Shown: positions 1 through 38,262 of the stretch, piece after piece | Position numbering within the stretch: position 1 is the stretch's first letter | Layout: each line of letters begins with the position of its first letter | Origin: Oscillatoriales cyanobacterium | GTDB taxonomy: Bacteria; Cyanobacteriota; Cyanobacteriia; Cyanobacteriales; Microcoleaceae | NCBI GenBank assembly: GCA_004293365.1 | Contig: RDYN01000041.1 | Coordinates: 1-64,000, forward strand | DNA length: 64,000 nucleotides | Direction: 5' to 3' | Program-made: the position numbers and the translations under genes | Notes under the pieces: generated by a model | What the model saw: the letters and a program-made list of their open reading frames with translations, nothing else | Databases searched by the model: none | Told to the model about the DNA's origin: nothing

Positions 1-96
1 AAAATCCAGCGCCGAACTCGAATTTGTCACCAGCGCCGACAATTACTCAAAATCCAGCGCCGAACTCGAATTTGTCACCAGCGCCGACAATTACTC
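1..96 (+). repeat. 48-bp in-frame tandem repeat
   Basis: Two identical 48-bp units (1-48 and 49-96) lie inside the CHAT gene and encode the 16-residue unit NPAPNSNLSPAPTITQ twice. A degenerate third unit may follow. More copies probably lie upstream of the window, since the first base already falls in a unit. A 48-bp unit keeps the reading frame, so copy number can change without killing the gene. Confidence 0.9.
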
Positions 97-1586
97 AAAT
101 TCTCCCTGCTCCCGCACCAATCAATCTCGCACCGATACCGACACCGGAACTCGCTCCGGCGCTCTCCAGCAACGGGCTTCCCAGCACAAATCCTTTATTT
201 TCTGCCAGCTTGCAACAGCAAAACCAGATATCTAGTTCATTGCAACAGCCTAATTCACGTCGCGAAACCTCGAATATTATTGACGTTTCCAGCTTGCCAG
301 TTAACCCCAGCGCCATTATTTTTCCGGTAGAAAACAGATTTACCAGGGAGTTTGTCGATTACCTGAATTTGCCACAAACAAATAAACGCGCCACCCTGGA
401 AGAGTCTCAAAAAATTCTTCGCAGCGTCGCACAAGCCACAGGTATCAAACCAGCTCTTGTATATATGAGCTTTGTACCCAATGGTTCTACATTCGATCGA
501 CCTTACAACAGTTCGTCGCTGTTGCGCGTAGAACAGCAAATTAAAAGCTCTGACGAACTCGAAGTAATGGTAATCGCCCCCGATAGCCCGCCCTTTCGCG
601 TGCGTATCGCTGGAACCTCTCGCGCCGAGGTAATGGAAACTATTCGGAAATTTCGCAACGAACTGACTAATCCGGTAAAACGCAATACTAAAACTTATTT
701 ACCCTTGGCTCAGCAGCTTTACCAGTGGATGATAGCGCCGATCGAGGCAGAGTTACAAGCCAAAGGTATTCAGAATTTATCTTTTATTGCGGATATGGGG
801 TTGCGATCGATACCGATGGCGGCGCTGCATGACGGGAAAGGCTTTCTGATAGAGCGTTACAGCGTCGGTTCAATGCCGAGTCTGAGTTTGACAGATACCA
901 GCACCACTAAGTTGCCAAATACGCAAGTTCTGGCAATGGGGGCATCACAATTTCCCGATATGAGTCCTTTACCTGCGGTGGAAATAGAAGTATCGACAAT
1001 TATCCCGCAGGAGTCGCCCGGTAAGTCTTTCTTGAACCAAGCTTTCACTCTGGCAAATTTGAAATCGCAGCGCCAGCAGTACCCTTTTGGGAGAATTCAC
1101 TTGGCTACTCACGCCGAATTTCGATCGGGAAACCCCAGCGAATCCTTTATTCAGTTGTGGGATACTAAATTGCGTTTGAATCAGTTGCGGGACATGGGAT
1201 GGGGCAGTCCGCAGGTTGATATGTTGGTTTTGAGTGCTTGCAGGACTGCTGTGGGCGATCGAGAGGCGGAGTTGGGTTTTGGCGGTTTAGCCGTGCAAGC
1301 AGGGGTTAAATCGGCTCTAGCGACTCTTTGGTATGTCAGCGACGAGGGCAGTTTGGGATTGATGGCGGACTTTTACGGCCAGTTGAGAAGTGCTCCGATG
1401 AAGGCTGAGGCCTTGCGGCAAGCGCAATTAGAGATGTTGCGCCAAGAGGTTCGCATTGAAGGGGGGATATTGCGGACTTCTGTGGGTAACGTGCAGCTAC
1501 CTCCGTCCATGGCAAAGACGGGGACTCGGAATTTTTCTCATCCCTACTATTGGGCGGCTTTTAGAATGATTGGCAATCCTTGGTAA
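1..1586 (+). CDS. CHAT-domain (caspase-like) protein, 5' end outside window
   Basis: The frame is already open at base 3, so the true start lies upstream; about 527 codons are visible. The first ~65 residues are a Pro/Ala/Thr-rich low-complexity linker that begins with a 16-residue in-frame repeat. The C-terminal half is a CHAT domain, a caspase-like peptidase fold. Counting from the TTG at base 24, the probable catalytic His is 363 in ATHAEF and the Cys is 406 in LSACRTA. Both are followed by typical CHAT blocks (GFGGLAVQAGVKSALATLW, then YYWAAFRMIG near the end). CHAT proteins of cyanobacteria are often fused to TPR or haemagglutinin-like regions, but what precedes the linker here cannot be seen. 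The next gene on this strand is an NLR-like NTPase 635 bp away, too far for a clear operon. The family assignment is firm; the substrate is unknown. Confidence 0.88.
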   Translation, partial: NPAPNSNLSPAPTITQNPAPNSNLSPAPTITQILPAPAPINLAPIPTPELAPALSSNGLPSTNPLFSASLQQQNQISSSLQQPNSRRETSNIIDVSSLPVNPSAIIFPVENRFTREFVDYLNLPQTNKRATLEESQKILRSVAQATGIKPALVYMSFVPNGSTFDRPYNSSSLLRVEQQIKSSDELEVMVIAPDSPPFRVRIAGTSRAEVMETIRKFRNELTNPVKRNTKTYLPLAQQLYQWMIAPIEAELQAKGIQNLSFIADMGLRSIPMAALHDGKGFLIERYSVGSMPSLSLTDTSTTKLPNTQVLAMGASQFPDMSPLPAVEIEVSTIIPQESPGKSFLNQAFTLANLKSQRQQYPFGRIHLATHAEFRSGNPSESFIQLWDTKLRLNQLRDMGWGSPQVDMLVLSACRTAVGDREAELGFGGLAVQAGVKSALATLWYVSDEGSLGLMADFYGQLRSAPMKAEALRQAQLEMLRQEVRIEGGILRTSVGNVQLPPSMAKTGTRNFSHPYYWAAFRMIGNPW

Positions 1587-1597
1587 TCAGATTTGTT

Positions 1598-1879
1598 TTA
1601 TAGGTACGTAGTTGGGCCCCGGCCCTCATTATCTGCACGTCTAAAGAGCAATAATGATTGGCAATCAGAGACGAATGTTACATTAGCAGCTTGAACTGGC
1701 GGTGCTAACAGGATCAGCAGAGTGCCGATCGCAATTCCCGCAGCGGATGTTTTGGGCGATCGGGTGGTTTTGGCGATCGGTTTTGCGGATTCGGGAGTGC
1801 GATCGCTTGGTAATAGATCTACTTTGAAATGTTGAAATTTGTGACAAATCATAATAATTCCTCCATTCGACCTCTCCAC
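1598..1879 (-). pseudogene. Small ORF with signal-peptide-like segment, probable gene remnant
   Basis: This 93-codon reading frame opposes the CHAT gene. Its middle holds a convincing export signal: a basic stretch (KTTRSPKT), then a hydrophobic run (AAGIAIGTLLILLA) and a PVQA-A cleavage site. Only about 30 residues follow. The last of these are encoded by a dispersed repeat (GGTACGTAGTTG type at 1603-1650), which suggests that the original gene was truncated by repeat insertion. An ATG at 1852 is an alternative start. I do not recognise the family. It may be untranslated. Confidence 0.3.
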
Positions 1880-2221: not shown

Positions 2222-4201
2222 ATGCCGTGTGCTGTTATCCTGACTGCTCTCTCAGTTGAATACCTTGCCGTTCGTGTCTATCTGTCCGATCTTCAGGAAG
2301 AGATTCATCCCCAGGGGACGATTTATGAGCGGGGGAAGTTCGCTCAGTCTCAAGGTGTGTGGGATGTGGGTATCGTCGAAATTGGAGCCGGCAATCCCGG
2401 TGCAGCAATGGAGGCAGAAAGAGCGATCGCTCATTTCAATCCTGATGTTATCCTCTTTCTCGGAGTAGCTGGGGGAATGAAAGAGAAAGATGTAGCCCTT
2501 GGTGATGTTGTCGCATCTACTAAAGTTTACGGGTACGAGTCAGGGAAAACAGAACAGACTTTCAAGCCTCGACCTGAAATTGGCTTGTCTGCTTATAGTC
2601 TAGAGCAACGAGCCAGAGCCGAAGCCAGAAGTGGTGACTGGCTGAAAAGACTATCCGTTTGTGAGCCGATCCCTCGCGTCTTTCTTGCGCCAATTGCAGC
2701 GGGTCAGAAGGTGATTGCTTCCACGAAATCGGAGGTTTTTCAATTTCTGCGATCGAACTATGGGGATGCAGTTGCTGTTGAAATGGAAGGATTTGGTTTC
2801 CTGGAGGCAGCGCGTGCCAATCAGCAGGTGTCTGCGATGGTTATTCGGGGAATTTCTGATTTGATTGATAATAAGACTGAGGTAGATAAGATAGGGTATC
2901 AAGAAATTGCTGCTCGTCACGCTAGTGCTTTTGCATTCGAGATTTTGGCAAAGTTTAAATCAGCACCTCCGCTTGTTCGTAAACAAGTTGTTCCAGAGAC
3001 TTCCCCATCGAATTCTCGCAACTTCTTTGCATTTGATGATGCCTGGGTGGGGCGGTCAAAGCTGCTCAGGGATTTAAGCTATCGAATTCAGGAATCCTGT
3101 CGTCTACTCATGCTGGTAGGGATTACTGGCATTGGCAAAACCGCATTAGGTGAACGGCTTGCGGTAGAGTTGGCAGATTGGTTTGATAACGATTGGACTC
3201 GGTTTCATCAGGAAAACTTTGAGGATGAGCAGCAATCCTCAGATTTTGCCAGTGTTGCTGCACGCTGGCTGGAGAAGTGGGGTGAATCGATTACCACTGA
3301 AGACCGCAAAGACCCTCAGCGACTGCTGTATCGATTGGTTCGCCATCTCTGCGAGAATCGCTATCTGGTGCTGATGGATTCACTGGAGAACATTTTACAG
3401 GGCAACGGGGAACAGGGCTGGAATGACTTTCAAGATGAATGGTGGCTCAAGTTCTTTGATAGTTATTTGAAAGCACAACTCTGTCAAACCTGCATTATTC
3501 TGACTTCTCAAGACCTACCTCGACAAATTGAAGCCATCGGTACGAAATCTAGAAACTTCAAGTATTGCCAACTTTTAAAAGGTTTGGAGCAACCAGAACA
3601 GATGGCTTTGTTTGAAAAAACGCAACTAGATATAAACCCCACTTCGGCAGGAACACTCTACTTGGAACGAATTGGAACTGCCTATGAGGGACACCCTCTG
3701 GCACTGCGGGTGATTGCTGGAGAAATCAAGAATAAGCCGTTTGAAGGCAATGTTGTTGCGTACTGGAACAAATACGGAAATGAGGTTGAGGAAGTTGAAA
3801 AGGCGATCGCGGAATCTCTAGAAGGAAAGTCTAGTGGAGCCAAGGATAAGTGGCAACTCGATCAGTTTACGAAGACGCTGCGGAGAAAGGTGCGTTCGCG
3901 CTTTAACAAAGACTTTGCTCGTCTACGGAACGATGCAAAATGGGCGTACATTTTACTCTGTGAATCATCTGTCTACCGATGCCCTGTTCCAGAGGATTTT
4001 TGGTTGAGCCACCTAAAGGATTGGGATCGAAACGAAGAAGAGCAAAAAGCAGCGTTGGATACGTTACGAGAGCGATACCTTGTTGAGGAAATAGTTCAAA
4101 ACAACCAGCACTTGTTAAGACAACATAATTTGATTCGCAGCGTATCTCTGGAACATCTGAGCCAAATGGATTATGAGATAAATGGAGTAGCCGATGAGTG
4201 A
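2222..4201 (+). CDS. Nucleosidase-NB-ARC NTPase fusion (NLR-like sensor, module A)
   Basis: The 659-residue protein has three parts. Residues 1-245 are a nucleoside phosphorylase/MTAN-fold domain: it opens with AVILTALSVEYLAV, and keeps the ribose-binding EMEG (187-190) and the catalytic-type Asp in ISD (D213). Residues ~275-560 are a STAND/NB-ARC NTPase with Walker A GITGIGKT (300-307), Walker B RYLVLMDS (D386), an ILTSQD sensor strand and a GHPLAL motif. Residues ~560-659 look like the winged-helix end of such NTPases. The stop overlaps the next gene by 8 bp, so the two are probably co-translated. Nucleosidase-STAND fusions belong to NTPase-centred conflict systems related in architecture to NLR immune receptors; activity on a particular nucleoside is inferred. 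A close paralogue of the NTPase part lies at 35651-37045 with an HTH instead of the nucleosidase. The ATG has only a weak ribosome site. Confidence 0.9.
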   Translation: MPCAVILTALSVEYLAVRVYLSDLQEEIHPQGTIYERGKFAQSQGVWDVGIVEIGAGNPGAAMEAERAIAHFNPDVILFLGVAGGMKEKDVALGDVVASTKVYGYESGKTEQTFKPRPEIGLSAYSLEQRARAEARSGDWLKRLSVCEPIPRVFLAPIAAGQKVIASTKSEVFQFLRSNYGDAVAVEMEGFGFLEAARANQQVSAMVIRGISDLIDNKTEVDKIGYQEIAARHASAFAFEILAKFKSAPPLVRKQVVPETSPSNSRNFFAFDDAWVGRSKLLRDLSYRIQESCRLLMLVGITGIGKTALGERLAVELADWFDNDWTRFHQENFEDEQQSSDFASVAARWLEKWGESITTEDRKDPQRLLYRLVRHLCENRYLVLMDSLENILQGNGEQGWNDFQDEWWLKFFDSYLKAQLCQTCIILTSQDLPRQIEAIGTKSRNFKYCQLLKGLEQPEQMALFEKTQLDINPTSAGTLYLERIGTAYEGHPLALRVIAGEIKNKPFEGNVVAYWNKYGNEVEEVEKAIAESLEGKSSGAKDKWQLDQFTKTLRRKVRSRFNKDFARLRNDAKWAYILLCESSVYRCPVPEDFWLSHLKDWDRNEEEQKAALDTLRERYLVEEIVQNNQHLLRQHNLIRSVSLEHLSQMDYEINGVADE

Positions 4202-6296
4202 GATTACACCTCCCGGTCAGTATATTCTCGATCAACTCAACCTTGACTCATCTAGCTTGAAGTCGGTAAAACCAAGAGATAACCGTTCACAGTATCGAGC
4301 TGCTATTAACTGGCTTAGTAGTTATCAGCCACAACTAGATGAATCAAAACCACAACAAGTTCGATGTCTTCTAGAAGCCTTTCATCATCTTTGCGAAGTC
4401 AAAGATTTAGATAGGGTTGCTCAACTTTTTTCTATTCAAATATTTCCTTATGTCAATGAAGATCTATATAATCAACTATATATTTGGGGACAATATGATG
4501 AATTGTCTGGAATCACCATGAGATTAATGGAACTTTTAGAGCTAAGCTCAGAAACAGATAAACAAGTTTGCAATCTAAAAGTAATCTGCTTAAAAAATTT
4601 AGCATTAGTCGAGTTTGTTCGCGGTAATTGCAATGCTTCTATTGATTATTATACTCAGCAGTTAAAAACATCAATACAGATTGAAGATTTGCACGGAAAA
4701 GCTTCTGCCTTAATTGGTTTAGGGCATAACTCAAAAATTTTAGGACAGTACCCAGAAGCAAATACCTATTATCTTTCTGCTCAAGATATTGGATCAAAAC
4801 TATCATATCCAAAATTGGTCATGTCTGCAAAATCAGGATTGGGAAGTATACAGATTCACATGGGACAGTATGAGCTAGCAATCCCGTATTTTCAGGAGCA
4901 GTTGAAAATAGCAAAAGAGATATCTGATAACTTAGGAAAAATACAAGCTCTTGCCGATCTTGGCAATGTTTATTCCCTGATAGGAGATCATGAAGCAGCA
5001 GTAGAAAGCCATTTAATCGCTCTTAAAATTACCCATTTAATTGAAAATCCAGAGGGTGAGGCTAAGATGCTTTTACATTTAGGATTTACTTTCTATATTC
5101 AACAGGAATATCGCGCAGCTATTTCTTTCTATAAGCAGTCTCTCACTATTTCTCGTTCAATCGGACTTTTGCTAGAGGAAGCAGAAGCTTTAGCACGTGT
5201 GGGAGTGTTGGAGAGAAAATTAGATGATTCACGAGGTACAAAAGAGTCATCTTTGGATAAGCTTCATCAAGCTTTATATCTATTTAAAAAAGTAGGTAGT
5301 CGTTCAGATGAGGCGCGAGTCTTAAAAGAAATGGCAGAGGTATACGACGAATCGAGAGACAAAAAGCTAGCCATTAAAGCTTGTAAAGAAGCTCTGGAGA
5401 TTGCACGTGAACTAAAACTTCCTATACAAGAGGATTGTCTAAAACTAGCAATAAAAATTGATGTTGAAAAAAATGTTGAAAAACTATCTAAAACTAGAAT
5501 GTTTAGAGAAATTGACTTAAAGGAATTCGATTGGCTCAAAGATGAAATTGATATTGTCCTTATTACTGCTACTAACATAGAGCTTAACGCGGTCTTGGAT
5601 AATTTAAAGCCATATCCAACTAAAAAAAATATTTTCAAGATATTTGAGGGGCCCGAAACTTACTATTTAGGTAAATTTGCCGCGTTTAAAGCAGTTGTTA
5701 CAAAATGTCGAATTGGATCAATCGGTGAAGGATCGGTTATTTTGGCGACTGAGCAAGCGCAACGTATATGGAAGCCGAGAGCTATTATTATGGTAGGCAT
5801 TGCTTTTGGTAAAGATTCACAAAAGCAAAAGATAGGCGATGTGCTAGTTGCTTCACAAATTATTTCATACGAACCACAGCGTCTTGGTGAGCCTGTTCAA
5901 AACCGGGGTAGTATCCCACCCAGTAATACAACGCTGCTCAACCGATTCGAGAATGTTCATAATTGGGAGTTTTTTGGTATTGATGGATCTCCTTGCGATC
6001 TTCGAGTTGGACCTATTCTGTCAGGTGAAAAGCTGATTAATGATCGAGAATTCAAATCGGCTCTGTTCCAACAATTTCCACAAGCTGTAGGTGGTGAAAT
6101 GGAGGGTTCTGGTCTATGTGCAGCATCAGGGCGAGTTGGCGTTCCGTGGATTTTAGTAAAGTCTATCTCTGATTGGGCAGATGGTCAAAAAAATGAGGAG
6201 TACCAACAATTAGCTGCTGCTGCTGCCGTTTCACTGGTTCATAAGGTACTTTTGCAGAGGACAGTTCTTAACTCCATTAGAAAAGTATCTCAATAA
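4194..6296 (+). CDS. TPR protein with C-terminal nucleosidase domain (module A partner)
   Basis: This 700-residue protein starts inside the end of the NTPase gene (8-bp overlap). Residues 1-~100 form a conserved lead-in (PPGQYILDQL, LEAFHHLCEV) that matches the start of the TPR protein at 37066. Residues ~130-430 are tetratricopeptide repeats of about 40 residues (for example ALIGLGHNSKILGQYPEA). Residues ~450-700 are a second nucleoside phosphorylase-fold domain: it opens DIVLITATNIELNAV and keeps EMEG (635-638) and ISDW with D660. Both proteins of the operon thus carry a nucleosidase-like domain with intact signature residues. The likely role is ligand sensing through the TPRs and effector action through the nucleosidase, partnered with the upstream NTPase; this is inference. 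Base composition is more A+T-rich than the neighbours, in keeping with acquired DNA. Confidence 0.88.
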   Translation: MSEITPPGQYILDQLNLDSSSLKSVKPRDNRSQYRAAINWLSSYQPQLDESKPQQVRCLLEAFHHLCEVKDLDRVAQLFSIQIFPYVNEDLYNQLYIWGQYDELSGITMRLMELLELSSETDKQVCNLKVICLKNLALVEFVRGNCNASIDYYTQQLKTSIQIEDLHGKASALIGLGHNSKILGQYPEANTYYLSAQDIGSKLSYPKLVMSAKSGLGSIQIHMGQYELAIPYFQEQLKIAKEISDNLGKIQALADLGNVYSLIGDHEAAVESHLIALKITHLIENPEGEAKMLLHLGFTFYIQQEYRAAISFYKQSLTISRSIGLLLEEAEALARVGVLERKLDDSRGTKESSLDKLHQALYLFKKVGSRSDEARVLKEMAEVYDESRDKKLAIKACKEALEIARELKLPIQEDCLKLAIKIDVEKNVEKLSKTRMFREIDLKEFDWLKDEIDIVLITATNIELNAVLDNLKPYPTKKNIFKIFEGPETYYLGKFAAFKAVVTKCRIGSIGEGSVILATEQAQRIWKPRAIIMVGIAFGKDSQKQKIGDVLVASQIISYEPQRLGEPVQNRGSIPPSNTTLLNRFENVHNWEFFGIDGSPCDLRVGPILSGEKLINDREFKSALFQQFPQAVGGEMEGSGLCAASGRVGVPWILVKSISDWADGQKNEEYQQLAAAAAVSLVHKVLLQRTVLNSIRKVSQ

Positions 6297-6371: not shown

Positions 6372-6476
6372 ATGAAATTAGAACAAATCCGCCCTTCAGA
6401 TGACGTAGCTCCTGGCTATGTGTCTGTCATCGAGTTCGGCACTCCCAAAGCACGGATCGTCAAAAAATGCAGATAG
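6372..6476 (+). CDS. Hypothetical 34-residue protein
   Basis: An ATG with a GAGAG ribosome site six bases upstream opens a 34-codon frame (begins MKLEQIRPSDDVAPGYVSV). It overlaps the next gene's ATG by 10 bp. The overlap and the ribosome site favour a real small gene translated together with the following one. It could equally be the surviving N-terminus of a longer protein. No family is recognised. Confidence 0.45.
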   Translation: MKLEQIRPSDDVAPGYVSVIEFGTPKARIVKKCR

Positions 6477-6781
6477 TAGAAGCCCTTCACCACGAAGCAA
6501 TGAAACTGGTCGATCGAGCCATTCTCGCCCGTCAGCGCGGCGATATCGACCAAGTGACTGCACTCACCAGAGCGGTCTTTGCCAAAGAACGCGCCGCAGC
6601 GGATTTAGTCGCAAACGAATGGGATTTTGAGCCGACTCGTTCTGTACTGCATCGGAGCGCCGCTGTACTTGCAATTGAGTGTGCCCAACTCCGGGAAGCA
6701 GAACGGTTGATTGGACGTGCTCTGGCAGGCAATCCTCCCGCCGACATTGCTGATGAACTGCGCGACTTGCTGATAGAATAA
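6467..6781 (+). CDS. Conserved hypothetical alpha-helical protein
   Basis: The 104-residue product looks fully helical and hydrophilic, with a TPR-like pattern of paired helices (LVDRAILARQRGDIDQVTALTR, split by a turn, then VLHRSAAVLAIECAQLREAERLI). It ends with NPPADIADELRDLL. Proteins of this shape recur as small cyanobacterial hypotheticals. The start ATG sits inside the 3' end of the 34-codon gene. No catalytic motif is visible and no function can be assigned; a scaffold or interaction role would fit the helix pairs. Confidence 0.7.
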   Translation: MQIVEALHHEAMKLVDRAILARQRGDIDQVTALTRAVFAKERAAADLVANEWDFEPTRSVLHRSAAVLAIECAQLREAERLIGRALAGNPPADIADELRDLLIE

Positions 6782-6920
6782 ATTTACTCCCAGCGCCAAG
6801 CGATCGGAGCTTAATCTGCTACATAAAATTTTTCTAAACCTATCCATAGTTAACTATAGAATTGATTTAACTTCCCCTCATTCAGGCATAATGTCTGGAA
6901 ACCCGCATTTCCGATAACGA

Positions 6921-7166
6921 ATGCCCACCATCCTTAGAAAAAATGGCTTCAGAGTCGTGATTTACTTTGACGACCATCTCCCAGCTCACGTTCATGTCAT
7001 GAATGCCGACAGTGAAGTTAAAATCGATCTAGGCAGTTCAGCAAATCCCCCGCAAATTATTCAATTAAACGGTAAGCGAGGCGATGCTGTCAAAGCACTA
7101 GAACTGGTGACTGCTCATCAAAACGAGCTATTAGAAGCATGGAGACAAATTCATGGAGAAATTTGA
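6921..7166 (+). CDS. DUF4160 family protein
   Basis: This 81-residue protein carries the DUF4160 signature: MPTILRKNGFRVVIYFDDH at the start, then PAHVHV and a short beta strand KIDLG. The family has members of about 80-90 residues. It is typically encoded next to a DUF2442 gene, as here, with the two frames overlapping by 14 bp. The pair behaves genomically like a toxin-antitoxin or similar two-gene unit; which partner is toxic cannot be read from sequence. An A+T-rich stretch at 6820-6900 probably contains the promoter. Confidence 0.82.
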   Translation: MPTILRKNGFRVVIYFDDHLPAHVHVMNADSEVKIDLGSSANPPQIIQLNGKRGDAVKALELVTAHQNELLEAWRQIHGEI

Positions 7167-7512
7167 ATTCACAGAAGCAGCACTTAAAGAACAACTCGAT
7201 CGCGCCGAAGCTGCCGCCATCCTTGCCAATACCACCGAACCCCGCGCCCGTTCAGCCTGCTACGATCGCACCTCCGGCAATATCGTCATTCACCTCAAAG
7301 ATGGTTCCACCTTCATGTTCCCCCATCACCTGGGACAAGGACTAGCCAACGCCACCCCAGATGACCTCGCCGCCGTCGAAGTTACCCCATCCGGTATAGG
7401 CTTACATTGGGAAACCCTCGATGTCGATTTAACTGTCCCATCCCTCCTCCGAGGCATTTACGGCACTAAAACCTGGATGGAACAACTCCACCAGCAACAA
7501 ATTGTTGCCTAG
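7153..7512 (+). CDS. DUF2442 family protein
   Basis: This 119-residue protein contains the DUF2442 core: a basic/acidic N-terminal helix (EAALKEQLDRAEAAAI), the strand pair NIVIHLKDGSTFMFP, and VEVTPSGIGLHWETLDVDLTVPSLLRGIYG towards the end (given here as family landmarks). Its ATG lies inside the DUF4160 gene, so the two should be translated as one unit. Proteins with this fold often act as the DNA-binding or neutralising member of paired systems; that role is inferred. Codon use is like the chromosomal genes nearby. Confidence 0.82.
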   Translation: MEKFEFTEAALKEQLDRAEAAAILANTTEPRARSACYDRTSGNIVIHLKDGSTFMFPHHLGQGLANATPDDLAAVEVTPSGIGLHWETLDVDLTVPSLLRGIYGTKTWMEQLHQQQIVA

Positions 7513-7559: not shown

Positions 7560-8108
7560 ATGACTGAAGACCCCATCCTGAAAATCTGGCTGCTAGAATA
7601 CGACAAACTCAAAGCCGAGCAAACCCAGCGGATTGGCTTCCGAGATAACCTCCTCTACGTTACCTTGGGTTTGTTCGGTACGATCGTGTCCTTTGCTGTT
7701 TCCAACTCCGCCAACTACTACGCTTTTCTACTCCTCCCCTGGGCTTCCTTGATTCTCGGCTGGACGTACCTAATAAACGATGAAAAGATAAGTGCGATCG
7801 GGCGATATATTCGGCTCACCTTAGTCGAAAAGGTCAAAGAAAAGACCGGACACGCAGATGTAGAATCTCTATTTGGCTGGGAAATTGCCCACCGGAGCGA
7901 TCGTAGACGATCGCGCCGCAAGATCGAGCAACTGATTGTTGATGAAATTACCTTCGTCGTGTCAGGAATTATTGCCTTAATTTCCTTCTGGGTTTTAGTA
8001 CCGGGCGCGGCTTTAGCAATCCATATTTTGGGTGGGGTTGAACTAATCCTGCTCCTGATCTTGGGTTGGGAAATTATCGTGTATGCCGACTTGGCAAAGG
8101 GGCGATAA
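7560..8108 (+). CDS. Membrane protein of unknown function
   Basis: I chose the ATG at 7560 over the TTG at 7539, giving 182 residues (MTEDPILKIWLLEYDKLK). An amphipathic N-terminal helix is followed by four likely membrane segments in two pairs: LLYVTLGLFGTIVSFAV and YAFLLLPWASLILGW, then FVVSGIIALISFWVLV and GGVELILLLILGWEIIV. A basic cytoplasmic loop (HRSDRRRSRRKIEQ) separates the pairs. The layout resembles small membrane proteins of unknown function found beside conflict genes, but I cannot name a family. It follows the DUF2442 gene by 47 bp on the same strand. Confidence 0.7.
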   Translation: MTEDPILKIWLLEYDKLKAEQTQRIGFRDNLLYVTLGLFGTIVSFAVSNSANYYAFLLLPWASLILGWTYLINDEKISAIGRYIRLTLVEKVKEKTGHADVESLFGWEIAHRSDRRRSRRKIEQLIVDEITFVVSGIIALISFWVLVPGAALAIHILGGVELILLLILGWEIIVYADLAKGR

Positions 8109-9919: not shown

Positions 9920-9933
9920 AAAGTAGCTGATTT

Positions 9934-10200
9934 AGGGTGTGCACCGCGCACCGGTCTGAGATGAGTGTAGGGTGTGCACCGCGCACCGGTCTGAGATGAG
10001 TGTAGGGTGTGCACCGCGCACCGGTCTGAGATGAGTGTAGGGTGTGCACCGCGCACCGGTCTGAAGGTGCGCAATGCGCACCCTACGAGAGGGTGTGCAC
10101 CGCGCACCGGTCTGAAGGTGCGCAATGCGCACCCTACGAGATGAGTCTAAGCGCACCGCGCATCGATCTGAGGTGCGCATTGCGCACCCTACAAGATGAG
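9934..10200. repeat. REP/BIME-like palindromic repeat cluster
   Basis: Four tandem copies of a 35-bp unit begin at 9934, 9969, 10004 and 10039, each built on GTGTGCACCGCGCACCGGTC. They grade into inverted units with the palindrome GGTGCGCAATGCGCACC (10066-10082, 10117-10133) and a variant at 10172-10188, each followed by CTAC. The cluster sits directly upstream of a RAYT transposase gene (10250), the usual partner of REP sequences. Several open frames across it are repeat artefacts. Confidence 0.88.
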
Positions 10201-10249
10201 TGTAAGATAAATGTAAGATGCCCTATCAAAAAGTAGGAGGACGATATCA

Positions 10250-10825
10250 ATGCCAAACTATCGCCGATTTTACCTTCCTGGTGGAACTTTCTTTTTAACG
10301 CTTGTTACCTACAATCGCACACCGCTATTTTCACAGCCAGAAAATGTGTCGCGACTTCGCAACGCTGTAGCAGCGATTAAATCAGAACAACCTTTTGAAA
10401 TTCTTGGGGCAGTTGTATTGCCAGATCACATCCATTTTTTGTGGAAATTGCCTCCTAATGATACTGCATACTCCAAGCGTCTTGGACGGATAAAAAAAAT
10501 ATTTACACAGTCTTTGCGCGGCCAAGGAAATTTACCTCAAAATGTTTCTGTTTCGCGTCGCAAACGTCGAGAAAGTGATGTTTGGAATCGACGCTTTTGG
10601 GAACACACTATTTGCGACGAAGATGATTTTGAAAAACATTTAAACTATATTCACTACAATCCTGTCAAGCATAATTTAATTTCTTGTCCGCATTTGTGGT
10701 CTTATTCCAGCTTTAACTTATGGGTTAAAAGAGATGTTTATTCAGTGAATTGGTGCTGTAGTTGTGATGACAGAAAGCCGAAAATACCAAATTTTGATGC
10801 CATTGCTTATAGGTGTGGTGAATAA
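10250..10825 (+). CDS. REP-associated tyrosine transposase (RAYT, IS200/IS605 Y1-type)
   Basis: This 191-residue protein is a Y1 HUH nuclease of the transposase_17 type. It starts with the family's basic YRRFYLPGGTFFLTLVTYNR. It has the metal-binding HUH motif in LPDHIHFLW (H60, H62), FWEHTICDEDDF, and the catalytic Tyr, most likely Y133 in NYIHYNPVKH. RAYTs are single-copy, domesticated relatives of IS200 transposases that bind and nick REP palindromes on single-stranded DNA. The adjacent palindrome cluster at 9934-10200 is the obvious substrate. A good ribosome site (AGGAGG at about 10235) precedes the ATG, and the frame is intact, so the gene is probably expressed. Confidence 0.92.
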   Translation: MPNYRRFYLPGGTFFLTLVTYNRTPLFSQPENVSRLRNAVAAIKSEQPFEILGAVVLPDHIHFLWKLPPNDTAYSKRLGRIKKIFTQSLRGQGNLPQNVSVSRRKRRESDVWNRRFWEHTICDEDDFEKHLNYIHYNPVKHNLISCPHLWSYSSFNLWVKRDVYSVNWCCSCDDRKPKIPNFDAIAYRCGE

Positions 10826-35650: not shown

Positions 35651-37045
35651 ATGGTGGCTACAATCAAAGCATCGAAAGAAGGACGGGAAAAATTTAAGGA
35701 GGCAAGAGAAAACAAGAGATGGAATCAAGAAGCTGATGCTTTGCTTACTCAAAGTGGTGTTCGGCGCTCAACCGTGCAGGCACTAGAGCAAGGGAGAAAC
35801 ATTAGGCAGGAAAACTTTGTCGCACTTTTCAAGGCTGTCGGGATAAAAAACTGGGAGACATACGTTGATAACAGCGCAACTCAGGCTTCATACATGGAGT
35901 TTTTGGTCTGTGATGATGGCTGGGTAGGTCGGGAGACACTAATTGATGAATCGATCGAGAAGGTGTGCGGATCTTGTCGAGTCTTACTTATAGTTGGCAT
36001 TACTGGTATCGGTAAAACTGCTTTGGCGGAACGTGTCGTTCAGGAATTGCGAGGAGATTGGAGGGAACACAGGGATAATTTTGAAGATGAGAAAAAAGTT
36101 TCAGATTTTGCCAGCGTCGCGCTGCAATGGCTGGAGAAGTGGGGAGAATCTGTCCCAAAAGACGATCGCAAACCAGAACAATTATTACGGCGGTTAGTCA
36201 AACACCTGCGCGAAAATCGGTATTTAATCCTGATGGATTCTCTTGAGTACCTATTGACAGGGAATGCAGAGGATGGCTGGGGTGATTTTGCTGATGAGTG
36301 GTGGGGTAAGTTTTTTGTAAGTTTCTTGGCAGAATCAGATTGTCAAAGTCGATTTATTCTGACTTCTCAGGATTTGCCAACTAAGTTTGAGAAAGCGGAG
36401 TGCGATCGCTATAAAAATCGTTGGTATTGCCAACTTTTGAAAGGATTAGAAATACCCGAACAAGTGGAGTTATTTCAAAAAGCTGAACTGGATGGCGATT
36501 TGGAACTAGCACACAGTCCCCTGCGAGTAATTGGAGAAGTTTATGACGGGCATCCTTTGGCTTTGCGGACGATCGCTGGAGAAATTAAAGAGTCTTATGG
36601 TAGGAAAGTCAGTGCTTACTGGAAAGAGAATAGCCGTTACATTGAAGAGGTGAAAGAGGCTATTGACGAAGCTCGCGATCGAGGAATAGTTAAAGGAGAT
36701 GAGGATAGGTGGCAGTTAGCATCATACACGAAAGTCTTGCGAAGGAAAGTTAAGGAACGGATCGATCGGACATTCGATCGTTTAAAAAATGATGCGTATG
36801 ATGCTTATTGTTTACTTTGTATGGCTTCGATTTATCGATGCGAAGTCAAGGAAACTTGGTGGCTGATTAATTTAGAAGATGAGGGTTATAGTGAGGAACA
36901 GCAAAAGGCAGCAATGCAAACTCTGCGCGATCGCTATTTAGTTGAAGATGGAGGAATTGATGATGAAGATAATCGGCTGGTGGGACAACATAATTTGATC
37001 CGCAGTGTGGCGATCGATCGCCGATTGATGCTACCAAAAAACTGA
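35651..37045 (+). CDS. HTH-NB-ARC NTPase (NLR-like sensor, module B)
   Basis: The 464-residue protein starts with a Cro/XRE-like helix-turn-helix (residues ~15-70, RRSTVQALEQGRNIRQENFV). A STAND/NB-ARC NTPase follows: Walker A GITGIGKT (116-123), Walker B RYLILMDS (D196), FILTSQDLP, and GHPLAL at about residue 300. A winged-helix end closes the protein (TLRDRYLVEDGGIDDE, then GQHNLIRSVA). From the Walker A onward it is a clear paralogue of 2222-4201, with most residues identical by eye (for example FEDE, SDFASVA, WLEKWGES, LMDSLE). The nucleosidase domain of module A is replaced by the HTH. A TPR gene follows 20 bp downstream. DNA binding by the HTH and a defence role are inferred. Confidence 0.9.
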   Translation: MVATIKASKEGREKFKEARENKRWNQEADALLTQSGVRRSTVQALEQGRNIRQENFVALFKAVGIKNWETYVDNSATQASYMEFLVCDDGWVGRETLIDESIEKVCGSCRVLLIVGITGIGKTALAERVVQELRGDWREHRDNFEDEKKVSDFASVALQWLEKWGESVPKDDRKPEQLLRRLVKHLRENRYLILMDSLEYLLTGNAEDGWGDFADEWWGKFFVSFLAESDCQSRFILTSQDLPTKFEKAECDRYKNRWYCQLLKGLEIPEQVELFQKAELDGDLELAHSPLRVIGEVYDGHPLALRTIAGEIKESYGRKVSAYWKENSRYIEEVKEAIDEARDRGIVKGDEDRWQLASYTKVLRRKVKERIDRTFDRLKNDAYDAYCLLCMASIYRCEVKETWWLINLEDEGYSEEQQKAAMQTLRDRYLVEDGGIDDEDNRLVGQHNLIRSVAIDRRLMLPKN

Positions 37046-37065
37046 AGAAATTGGATAAATTCACC

Positions 37066-38262
37066 ATGACAAATAACCTGACACCATCGGGAGATAAGGT
37101 TTTGGAACAATTAGGTATCAATCCTCATAATCTCAGTGTCCATTTTCCAAATCGCGAGCAGCGGCTTCAGTACAGAGCAGTTGTACAGTGGCTAACTGAT
37201 TATAAATCGAAGCCGGGTGCTTCCAATTTAGAGAAAGTAAAGGGATACTTGGAAGCGTTTCACCATCTTTGTCAGGTGGAAGATTGGATACGAAGTAGCA
37301 AAATTATATCAACTCAACTCGATACACATACCAATGACGAATTGCATCATCAATTATTACTCTGGGGCTACTATAGGGAACTGATTGAGCTGTACAACCA
37401 ACTTTGGGGCAAATTAAGCCTTAATCATGATGCTATTTTTATCGCCAATCTTTGCAATAATTTGGGCAATGCTTACTATGGACTAGGAAAATATTTCCAA
37501 GCAATTGACTATTATCAACAGAGTTTAAGTATTGCACGGGCAATTCGCGATCGCGAAGCTGAGGGAAGGGCACTGGGAAATCTGGGCAATGCTTATAATT
37601 CGCTAGAATACTATCTCAAAGCGATTGACTACCACAAACAGAGTTTAAGTATTGCAAGGGAAATCGGCGACCGCAACGGTGAGGGATGCGCGTTGGGAAG
37701 TCTGGGAGATGCTTGCAATTCGTTGGGAAATTATGGCCAAGCCATCGAATATCTCAAACAAAGTTTAGTCATTGCAAAGTCAATCGGTAATCGCAACAGT
37801 GAGGGATGCGCGTTGGGAAATCTGGGAAAGGCTTACAATTCGTTGGAAGATTATCCCCAAGCCATTGAGTATTTCCAGAAGAGTTTAACTATTTTCCAGG
37901 AAATTGGCGATCGCAACGGTGAAGGAAAAGCACTGGGAAATCTAGGACTTGTTTGCGGTTTGCTAGAAGATTATACCCAAGCCATTGAGTATCTCCAACA
38001 AAGTTTAATCATTGCAAGGGAAATTGGCGATCGCAACACTGAAGGAATCACACTGTCAGATATGGGAGTTGCTTACTATTCTCTAGGAAAATATGCTGAA
38101 GCCATCAACTATCACCAACAGAGTTTAACTATTGTACGGGAAATCGGACAACGCCACGCACAAGAGCGGGCTTTACTTAATCTAGTCAGAGCTTTCTGTG
38201 CTTTAAGAAAGTATGACAAAGCAATGGAATGCAATCAGCAGCACTTAGCTCTCATCCAATGA
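37066..38262 (+). CDS. TPR protein (module B partner)
   Basis: I start at the ATG at 37066, which aligns MTNNLTPSGDKVLEQLGINP with the start of the module A partner; the TTG at 37051 is less likely. The 398-residue protein shares the lead-in (LEAFHHLCQVEDW) with 4194-6296. It then consists of about seven 40-residue TPRs (for example NLGNAYYGLGKYFQAIDYYQ), encoded by ~120-bp DNA repeats that are still very similar to each other. The C-terminal nucleosidase of the module A partner is absent. A ligand- or partner-sensing role with the upstream NTPase is likely. The similar DNA repeats suggest active expansion or gene conversion. Confidence 0.9.
   Translation: MTNNLTPSGDKVLEQLGINPHNLSVHFPNREQRLQYRAVVQWLTDYKSKPGASNLEKVKGYLEAFHHLCQVEDWIRSSKIISTQLDTHTNDELHHQLLLWGYYRELIELYNQLWGKLSLNHDAIFIANLCNNLGNAYYGLGKYFQAIDYYQQSLSIARAIRDREAEGRALGNLGNAYNSLEYYLKAIDYHKQSLSIAREIGDRNGEGCALGSLGDACNSLGNYGQAIEYLKQSLVIAKSIGNRNSEGCALGNLGKAYNSLEDYPQAIEYFQKSLTIFQEIGDRNGEGKALGNLGLVCGLLEDYTQAIEYLQQSLIIAREIGDRNTEGITLSDMGVAYYSLGKYAEAINYHQQSLTIVREIGQRHAQERALLNLVRAFCALRKYDKAMECNQQHLALIQ

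What the first reader, a model, noticed from the sequence alone, without database searches (positions are those of the whole stretch)
2222..6296. NLR-like operon carrying two nucleosidase-type domains
Two overlapping genes (8 bp) encode a nucleosidase-NB-ARC NTPase and a TPR-nucleosidase. Both nucleosidase domains keep the EMEG and S-D signature residues (E187-G190 and D213; E635-G638 and D660), so neither looks like a dead sensor domain. STAND NTPases with nucleoside-phosphorylase-like domains are known as a class of conflict systems, but one operon with the domain at the N-terminus of the NTPase and at the C-terminus of the TPR partner is unusual as far as I know. A model: the TPRs bind a phage or stress cue, the NTPase assembles, and paired nucleosidases deplete a nucleotide or nucleoside second messenger.
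Basis: partly seen in the sequence, partly recalled or inferred. Interest (0 to 1): 0.85.

Follow-up and report, generated by a model that had tools for sequence, protein, structure and literature searches.

The report
Twin-nucleosidase immune receptor with membrane partner

Summary
Gene A (2222-4201) is a PNP-superfamily nucleosidase fused to an intact STAND NTPase; gene B (4194-6296) is TPR repeats fused to a second PNP; both keep all four catalytic-site acidic residues. The PNPs are 28% identical and fall in separate clades: recruitment, not recent duplication. The NTPase family usually carries an HTH-like domain instead; such a paralogue operon lies at 35651-38262. The A-then-B order recurs in Stenomitos rutilans and Oscillatoria PCC 10802; Leptolyngbya boryana has two PNPs (clades A and C) on one NTPase chain.

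New: a 182-residue membrane protein, "TM4" (7560-8108), outside the finding. In 388 class genomes, 24 of 25 with this PNP also have TM4; 33 of 36 TM4 genes have a PNP within 8 kb, on varied receptor scaffolds. The few TM4 proteins scanned met no Pfam, NCBIfam or PADLOC family.

Best reading: an NLR-like conflict system whose PNPs cleave a purine nucleotide, with TM4 as a membrane partner. Substrate, trigger and TM4's role are untested. PNP effectors in NLR-like systems are known; twin PNPs plus TM4 is a new variant.

The parts
2222..4201 (+). Gene A, 659 aa: PNP_A nucleosidase domain (aa 1-246) fused to a STAND NTPase (aa ~263-652)
2222..2959 (+). PNP_A domain; E13, E187, E189, D213 present; K163, R209 and K218 kept together in 52 of 59 clade-A rows
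3008..4177 (+). STAND NTPase core (Walker A GITGIGKT aa 300-307, Walker B-like LVLMDS aa 382-387); 74% identical to the NTPase of L105, 55% to the paralogue in the same window
4194..4201 (+). 8-bp overlap ATGAGTGA between genes A and B (probable translational coupling; inference)
4194..6296 (+). Gene B, 700 aa: N-terminal module and TPR repeats (aa 1-425) fused to C-terminal PNP_B
5541..6278 (+). PNP_B domain (aa 450-695); E463, E635, E637, D660 present
7560..8108 (+). 'TM4' (my label): 182-aa membrane protein, four long predicted helices, no described family matched; recurrent partner of PNP_A (the ORF lister starts it at TTG 7539; ATG 7560 fits the family alignment)
35651..37045 (+). Comparison, not part of the system: paralogous NTPase with an HTH-like N-terminus (HTH_3, 19.0 bits, below the cut-off of 23) in place of the PNP
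37051..38262 (+). Comparison: TPR partner of the paralogue, without a PNP

Best explanation
An NLR-like conflict (probably anti-phage or self/non-self) system of three proteins. Shown by sequence: gene A is a nucleosidase-fold domain on a STAND NTPase; overlapping gene B supplies TPR repeats and a second, distantly related nucleosidase; a four-helix membrane protein (TM4) is the recurrent partner of the first nucleosidase's family. Inferred: the TPR protein recognises a cue and holds the NTPase inactive; on activation the NTPase binds ATP and oligomerises, bringing PNP_A copies together with PNP_B (relatives of this fold work as dimers or hexamers; recalled). The PNPs hydrolyse the base-sugar bond of a purine nucleotide, most likely (d)ATP or a near relative as in the Cap17 effectors. 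TM4 converts the result into a membrane event: my preferred order is that TM4 lies downstream and responds to the product or to the fall in nucleotide. The outcome would be growth arrest or death of the infected cell.
For: PNP_UDP_1 at both ends, intact catalytic columns and Walker motifs. The NTPase + TPR-partner pairing is general: 20 of 20 PNP-less loci fetched have a related partner gene next door, 18 of them with TPR-repeat matches. The same PNP clade sits on NB-ARC, NACHT-HEAT, SEFIR-NTPase and NTPase-EAD8 scaffolds and beside MoxR/vWA ternary-system genes. Same A-B gene order in two further genera. Congener G003 has, at the same chromosomal site (LeuC and aquaporin neighbours), a 90%-identical PNP_A on another NB-ARC with another TPR partner: turnover typical of conflict genes. 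PADLOC effector models match both proteins. TM4: 24 of 25 PNP_A genomes also have TM4 (Fisher p=1e-28 in 388 genomes; 12 of 14, p=1e-11, in 98 relatives); of 36 TM4 genes 26 lie within 400 bp of a PNP match and 18 are divergent from it; absent from 20 of 20 PNP-less NTPase loci. Published: PF01048 is Cap17 in CBASS, Detocs, pAgo, DRT8 and NLR-like systems, 'Degradation of (d)ATP/cell death' (PMC10952713, table passage).
Against: No experiment. Substrate not shown: the PDB sequence matches (26 for A, 40 for B) are MTA/SAH, adenosylhomocysteine or aminodeoxyfutalosine nucleosidases and plant relatives, none an ATP nucleosidase. In this window TM4 is not adjacent: it starts 1.26 kb past gene B with three small ORFs between. 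Of 16 early loci with a PNP_A match (L054-L067, L070, L071), TM4 was found in 10 (a truncated one in L070); L058 to L061 and L067 had none, some on short contigs. 11 of 35 TM4 genomes lack a PNP_A of 100 bits. 15 of 80 named TM4 loci carry no detected PNP, and nine of these show no recognised partner. Cap17 effectors are reported without a membrane partner (recalled), so TM4 is not needed for depletion as such. TM4 has no fold match beyond generic helical bundles, and no dedicated membrane-topology predictor was run. Gene A's structure prediction was poor (pLDDT 65.8), so no complex could be judged.
Confidence: 0.55

Rival explanations
1. Pure depletion: PNP_A and PNP_B destroy (d)ATP directly; TM4 is an accessory (membrane anchor, brake or exporter), not an effector.
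For: Cap17 PNPs are listed with (d)ATP degradation and cell death, NLR-like systems included (PMC10952713 passage). TM4 is a separate gene, divergent from the nearest PNP match in 18 of 33 cases, as regulators and antidotes often are.
Against: TM4 follows the PNP through varied sensor scaffolds and into other phyla, more than depletion alone would need. Known depleting PNPs need no such partner (recalled).
Confidence: 0.25
2. Split labour: only one PNP is the toxic effector; the other is a sensor, decoy or regulatory partner that binds or edits the first one's product.
For: The clades differ (28% identity). Clade B is on EAD8 adaptors in L056 and L068, and Kaur 2020 assign EAD8 to recruiting effectors (PMC7159879 passage). 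In four other loci (L119, L120, L121, L140) one PNP_A has lost catalytic residues while another keeps the pattern.
Against: In this window both PNPs keep every catalytic column.
Confidence: 0.3
3. Metabolic or regulatory role (MTA/SAH salvage or nucleoside sensing), not conflict.
For: Closest solved relatives are MTA/SAH nucleosidases; PNP-less relatives of the NTPase carry HTH-like domains, so the family may include regulators.
Against: NCBIfam MTA/SAH nucleosidase models score 19-76 bits against cut-offs of 73.8-768, none met. The genome holds a third, stronger PNP_UDP_1 gene (152 bits), apparently MTAP-like (motif recalled). Distribution is patchy: PNP_A of 100 bits or more in 25 of 388 genomes. 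Partners change at the same locus.
Confidence: 0.1

Closest known systems
Cap17 PNP effectors (CBASS, Detocs, pAgo, DRT8, NLR-like systems; Rousset et al. 2023, seen only as a table passage in PMC10952713)
   Same: PF01048 enzyme domain coupled to an immune sensor, including NLR-like ones; PADLOC 'PN-superfamily' effector model matches both proteins
   Different: Two PNPs of distinct clades on two proteins; a recurrent four-helix membrane partner; activity untested here
Conflict systems of Kaur et al. 2020 and 2021 (VMAP or iSTAND-MoxR-vWA ternary systems, EADs, AP-ATPase-TPR); passages read only
   Same: PNPase as predicted signal generator, EAD8, SEFIR/TIR, NTPase and TPR modules; PNP_A lies beside such genes in L056, L059, L063-L066
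   Different: The window operon has no MoxR, vWA or EAD match; the passages read mention 2TM SLATT proteins, not this TM4 family
Fungal NLRs with N-terminal PNP_UDP (PMC9815663, PMC10197012 passages)
   Same: PNP_UDP at the N-terminus of a STAND receptor
   Different: Receptor on one chain there (recalled); here the repeats are a second protein with its own PNP
HTH-like STAND + TPR-partner operons (common form of this NTPase family)
   Same: Same NTPase core and related partner, same two-gene order (20 of 20 loci fetched for lacking a PNP match; paralogue at 35651-38262)
   Different: HTH-like domain in place of PNP, no PNP on the partner, no TM4 nearby

Membership tests
Phosphorylase superfamily (PF01048) | Match over the curated cut-off at both ends | tested here: met
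   89 and 62.3 bits against a cut-off of 25.1
Phosphorylase superfamily (PF01048) | Conserved acidic catalytic columns intact | tested here: met
   E13/E187/E189/D213 and E463/E635/E637/D660; that these are the catalytic positions is recalled from MTA/SAH nucleosidase
STAND NTPase / NLR-like receptor | Walker A and Walker B with superstructure-forming repeats in the system | tested here: met
   GITGIGKT and LVLMDS; TPR_12 E=5e-30 in gene B
NB-ARC (PF00931) proper | Score over the curated cut-off | tested here: not met
   21.2 bits against 23.5; 4 of 6 PNP-less relatives scanned pass
Cap17 ATP nucleosidase effector | Cleaves (d)ATP on phage infection | not testable with these tools
   needs enzymology; only the sequence family was tested
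MTA/SAH nucleosidase (housekeeping) | NCBIfam equivalog cut-offs | tested here: not met
   A: 71.6 against 169 (PRK05584) and 42.6 against 73.8 (TIGR01704); B: 76.2 and 33.0
SLATT / S-4TM pore-forming effectors (for TM4) | Sequence match to a Pfam SLATT-type model | tested here: not met
   5 TM4 proteins (of 46 collected) against Pfam at E<=1: none of the listed matches is SLATT-type; HMMER filters drop most matches above about 0.1
SLATT / S-4TM pore-forming effectors (for TM4) | Shared fold and gated pore function | tested here: inconclusive
   Model pLDDT 87.6; only generic helical bundles matched; function not testable
VMAP/iSTAND-MoxR-vWA ternary systems | MoxR and vWA genes in the locus | tested here: not met
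   no match in the window to the L056 MoxR-like and vWA-like proteins (phmmer; these labels are mine, from Kaur-type context); matches in L056, L059, L063-L066, L137

The most novel reading that the evidence does not exclude
PNP and TM4 form a two-part output module not named in the libraries searched: the nucleosidase is a signal generator whose nucleotide-derived product (or the released base or sugar phosphate) gates or activates the four-helix membrane protein, and this module has been plugged into many receptor scaffolds (STAND-TPR, NACHT-HEAT, SEFIR, SIR2, SNF2, MoxR-vWA) in Cyanobacteria, Actinomycetota and other phyla. The twin-PNP operon would be a two-step version in which the second PNP makes, edits or removes the signal.
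Probability: 0.33. Interest if true: 0.85.

Novelty: new variant of a known kind. Interest (0 to 1): 0.62.

Why it matters
PNP effectors are described as enzymes that degrade ATP. A membrane protein family that follows the PNP through many different immune scaffolds points to an extra, membrane-based step that none of the family libraries searched here names. It is directly testable by gene deletion in a cyanobacterium that carries the one-chain twin-PNP version. The window pair also gives a natural case with two catalytically intact PNPs of different clades in one receptor.

Tried and rejected
Housekeeping salvage: rejected as the main reading; NCBIfam cut-offs are not met and a separate, stronger PNP_UDP_1 gene exists.

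Recent duplication of one PNP: rejected; 28% identity and separate clades with 100/100 support.

Dead sensor domain: rejected for both window PNPs; probable for four other PNP_A copies.

Upstream CHAT gene (24-1586) as a partner: not supported; the CHAT queries hit only the window among the loci held then (L001-L073).

Gene A structure: the alignment mixed partial rows and gave pLDDT 65.8 with much of the PNP under 50; not used.

TM4 fold search: Foldseek best E 0.5; VIA best Z 12.0 against a designed nanopore, within the range the tool warns about for helical bundles; no relationship claimed. TM4 profile against PDB sequences: none. TM4 in viral contigs: 1 locus, no PNP detected in the 10.5 kb held.

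Literature: Burroughs 2015 is not held. Searches, judged by titles and abstract starts, listed no paper on a PNP with a 4TM partner; one search was badly phrased and returned mostly unrelated medicine. This is absence in that library and those terms only.
Full report
WHAT IS THERE. Gene A (2222-4201, 659 aa) and gene B (4194-6296, 700 aa) overlap by ATGAGTGA. Pfam PNP_UDP_1 matches A at residues 5-238 (89 bits) and B at 454-686 (62 bits). The middle of A matches AAA_22, NACHT, AAA_16 and NB-ARC weakly, each below its cut-off; B has strong TPR matches. Walker A (GITGIGKT) and a Walker B-like motif are intact. The acidic columns E13, E187, E189, D213 (A) and E463, E635, E637, D660 (B) are present. 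Across 96 distinct PNP domains the pattern EEED is kept in 52 of 59 clade-A, 11 of 12 clade-B and 20 of 25 clade-C rows; two of the deviating clade-A rows and three of the clade-C rows deviate only by gaps. That these columns correspond to catalytic residues of E. coli MTA/SAH nucleosidase (Glu12, Glu174, Asp197; E187 is the extra one) is recalled. The solved sequences found are MTA/SAH-type nucleosidases and their kin.

THE GENOME. The window is part of a 7.3 Mb assembly with 218 contigs; the closest named relative by TM4 is Microcoleus sp. CAN_BIN18 (91%), so Microcoleus is the likely genus (inference). The genome has three PNP_UDP_1 matches: the two here and one at 152 bits elsewhere.

WHERE THE NTPase COMES FROM. 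A search with gene A in 98 relative genomes gave a match in 89; most listed rows cover only the NTPase region. I fetched 20 loci whose listed match covered only that region, so the lack of a PNP in them is by choice. In 18 of 20 the N-terminus resembles that of the window paralogue (phmmer), which Pfam reads as HTH_3 at 19.0 bits, below its cut-off of 23; one of the other two has a LuxR-type HTH above its cut-off (GerE, 34.2 bits) and one starts at a contig end. So 'HTH' is likely but weakly scored. All 20 have a partner gene related to the N-terminal part of gene B or of the paralogue's partner, 18 of them with TPR-repeat matches. One such operon lies in the same window (35651-37045 and 37051-38262). 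In a tree of 36 NTPases, that of gene A is closest to L105 (100/99). Ten of the 11 PNP-bearing NTPases fall in one 13-row group (87/99), which also holds three rows without an N-terminal PNP; the eleventh (L055, long branch) falls elsewhere.

TWO KINDS OF PNP. PNP_A (59 rows) and PNP_B (12 rows) are each one side of a branch with 100/100 support; PNP_C (25 rows) is not resolved as one group. In the window A and B share 28% identity. PNP_B of the window groups (100/97) with an EAD8-PNP_B protein of congener G003 (L056) and a TPR-PNP_B protein of Oscillatoria sp. PCC 10802 (L148). PNP_A of the window instead groups (100/98) with two congeners (L057, L058) whose NTPases differ, not with L056 or L148. 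So the N-terminal PNP has been exchanged independently of PNP_B (inference from the two groupings). At the site next to LeuC and aquaporin, G003 carries a 90%-identical PNP_A on another NB-ARC with another TPR protein that shows no PNP.

HOW RARE THE TWIN ARRANGEMENT IS. Same order as the window (PNP_A-NTPase gene, then TPR-PNP_B gene): Stenomitos rutilans HA7619-LM2 (L104 = L169; PNP_A-NB-ARC-TPR 993 aa, TPR-PNP_B 579 aa; its NB-ARC did not match the window NTPase in the phmmer map) and Oscillatoria PCC 10802 (L148; PNP_A-SEFIR-NTPase 853 aa, TPR-PNP_B 803 aa, overlapping). Variant: G003 (L056), X-PNP_A-SEFIR-NTPase-TPR 1618 aa plus EAD8-PNP_B 413 aa. One-chain version: PNP_A-PNP_C-NTPase in L105 and in Leptolyngbya boryana NIES-2135 plasmid1 (BAY59304.1). 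After removing loci that share an identical PNP domain, 78 PNP loci remained; 15 had two or more PNP domains and 8 of these combined different clades. These loci were gathered through PNP, TM4 or NTPase hits, so the fractions are not population rates. Other attachments of clade B: SIR2 (L180, L194), GUN4 (L113), and four rows (L106, L110, L111, L112) with no second domain identified, of which only L110 was scanned against Pfam.

THE MISSED PARTNER. Among loci held, TM4 was found in 10 of the 16 fetched loci with a PNP_A match (window not counted) and in none of the 20 PNP-less NTPase loci. Independent searches: in 388 genomes of the class, TM4 in 35 and PNP_A at 100 bits or more in 25, both in 24 (exception G207); Fisher p = 9.6e-29. 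Of the 11 TM4 genomes without such a PNP_A, several have a weaker PNP next to TM4 (G252, G270, G359, G366, G409). In 98 relatives, TM4 in 14 (one, G046, degraded), PNP_A matches of 80 bits or more in 14 (some fragments), both in 12; p = 9.8e-12. The samples share some genomes, and related genomes are not independent, so the p-values overstate. Of 36 TM4 matches at 150 bits or more, 33 have a PNP match within 8 kb on the same contig, 26 of them within 400 bp; relative to the nearest PNP match 18 are divergent, 11 co-directional, 4 convergent; PNP matches as weak as 23 bits were accepted. The three without are G372, G336 and G153:C246. As a rough yardstick, three PNP genes in 7.3 Mb put about 0.7% of positions within 8 kb of one. 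A scan of one genome for each of 84,980 species gave 274 TM4 relatives; of the best 80, 65 have a PNP match (E <= 1e-3, fragments included) on the fetched stretch, 55 within 500 bp, including Candidatus Halobeggiatoa (L221) and an alphaproteobacterium (L220). Of the 15 without, L178 has a SEFIR-NTPase, L150 has two related NTPases, L183 has a TIR gene nearby, three Thiotrichaceae loci (L208, L214, L218) have neighbours that look unrelated, and nine show no recognised partner, some on short contigs. On plasmids, 6 records hold TM4; in the four opened, a PNP gene is the direct neighbour or in the same run of genes: Nostoc pn6, L. boryana plasmid1, Nostoc pNOS3756_1, and Streptomyces sp. M54 pLBRS, where the order is PNP, a 656-aa protein, TM4; a fifth record, the Calothrix NIES-4105 plasmid, is locus L159 with PNPs on both sides.

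WHAT TM4 IS. 22 invariant columns in 45 sequences; four long helices, pLDDT 87.6; hydrophobic stretches near 29-74 and 122-181, the 51-74 part weaker. No model is met: Pfam for 5 proteins, NCBIfam for 5 (best 21.9 bits against a cut-off of 100), PADLOC for 4 (PDC-M67B at E=0.015 for one). Nothing in PDB by sequence, only generic helical bundles by fold.

SCAFFOLDS SEEN WITH PNP + TM4: STAND NTPase + TPR; PNP-NACHT-HEAT (L123) and NACHT-HEAT-PNP (L122); PNP-SEFIR-NTPase (L056, L148); PNP-SIR2 (L108, L180, L194); SNF2 helicase-PNP (L151); PNP-caspase (L221); PNP beside MoxR/vWA-like genes (L056, L063-L066, L137). The recurrent pair is PNP and TM4; the sensor varies.

MECHANISM. Shown: domain content, intact motifs, recurrent order, PNP-TM4 association. 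[quoted passage not shown] PNPases are predicted signal generators and on several occasions occur with 2TM SLATT proteins (PMC7159879, passages). Inferred: TPR sensing, NTPase assembly, PNP activation, TM4 output. The lysine of the GxK motif (K163/K613) and R/K before the catalytic Asp (R209/K656) could bind phosphate, but no structure supports this yet.

VERDICT. Observation right; interpretation partly right; the most informative part was just outside the coordinates. A new variant of a known kind, with a partner family that the libraries searched do not name.

Noticed in passing
window 35651-38262: Paralogous operon: HTH-like N-terminus on the same NTPase family, followed by a TPR gene; the common form of the family.
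   Followed up: yes
window 24-1586: CHAT-domain protein (225 bits) directly upstream on the same strand; no match to it in the fetched stretch of the corresponding site in G003 (L057).
   Followed up: partly
window 1598-1879 (-): 93-aa ORF that by eye looks like a shortened copy of the 286-aa protein at L057 5023-5883, so the left edge of the locus seems rearranged.
   Followed up: no
window 6467-7512: Three small genes between gene B and TM4: a 104-aa protein conserved at the same place in L057 and, by eye, next to TM4 in L183; then DUF4160 and DUF2442.
   Followed up: partly
L119 1341, L120 4635, L121 2, L140 10040: PNP_A copies that lost catalytic residues, each in a locus with another PNP_A that keeps them; three of the four group at 99/99 in the tree.
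   Followed up: partly
L151, L155, L157, L160: C-terminal PNP_C in 879-944-aa proteins within 80 bp of TM4; the one scanned (L151) is a SNF2-family helicase fusion.
   Followed up: partly
L108, L180, L194: PNP fused to a SIR2-like domain next to TM4: two nucleotide-cleaving folds in one protein.
   Followed up: partly
L104 2710-4347: PNP_C-SAVED protein (CBASS-type effector architecture) 3.3 kb from the twin-PNP pair in Stenomitos rutilans.
   Followed up: no
L208, L214, L218: N-terminally extended TM4 homologues in Thiotrichaceae without a detected PNP nearby; perhaps a free-standing family.
   Followed up: no
window 9932-10825: Short repeats followed by a small ORF (10250-10825) that resembles REP-associated transposases (recalled, not tested).
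   Followed up: no
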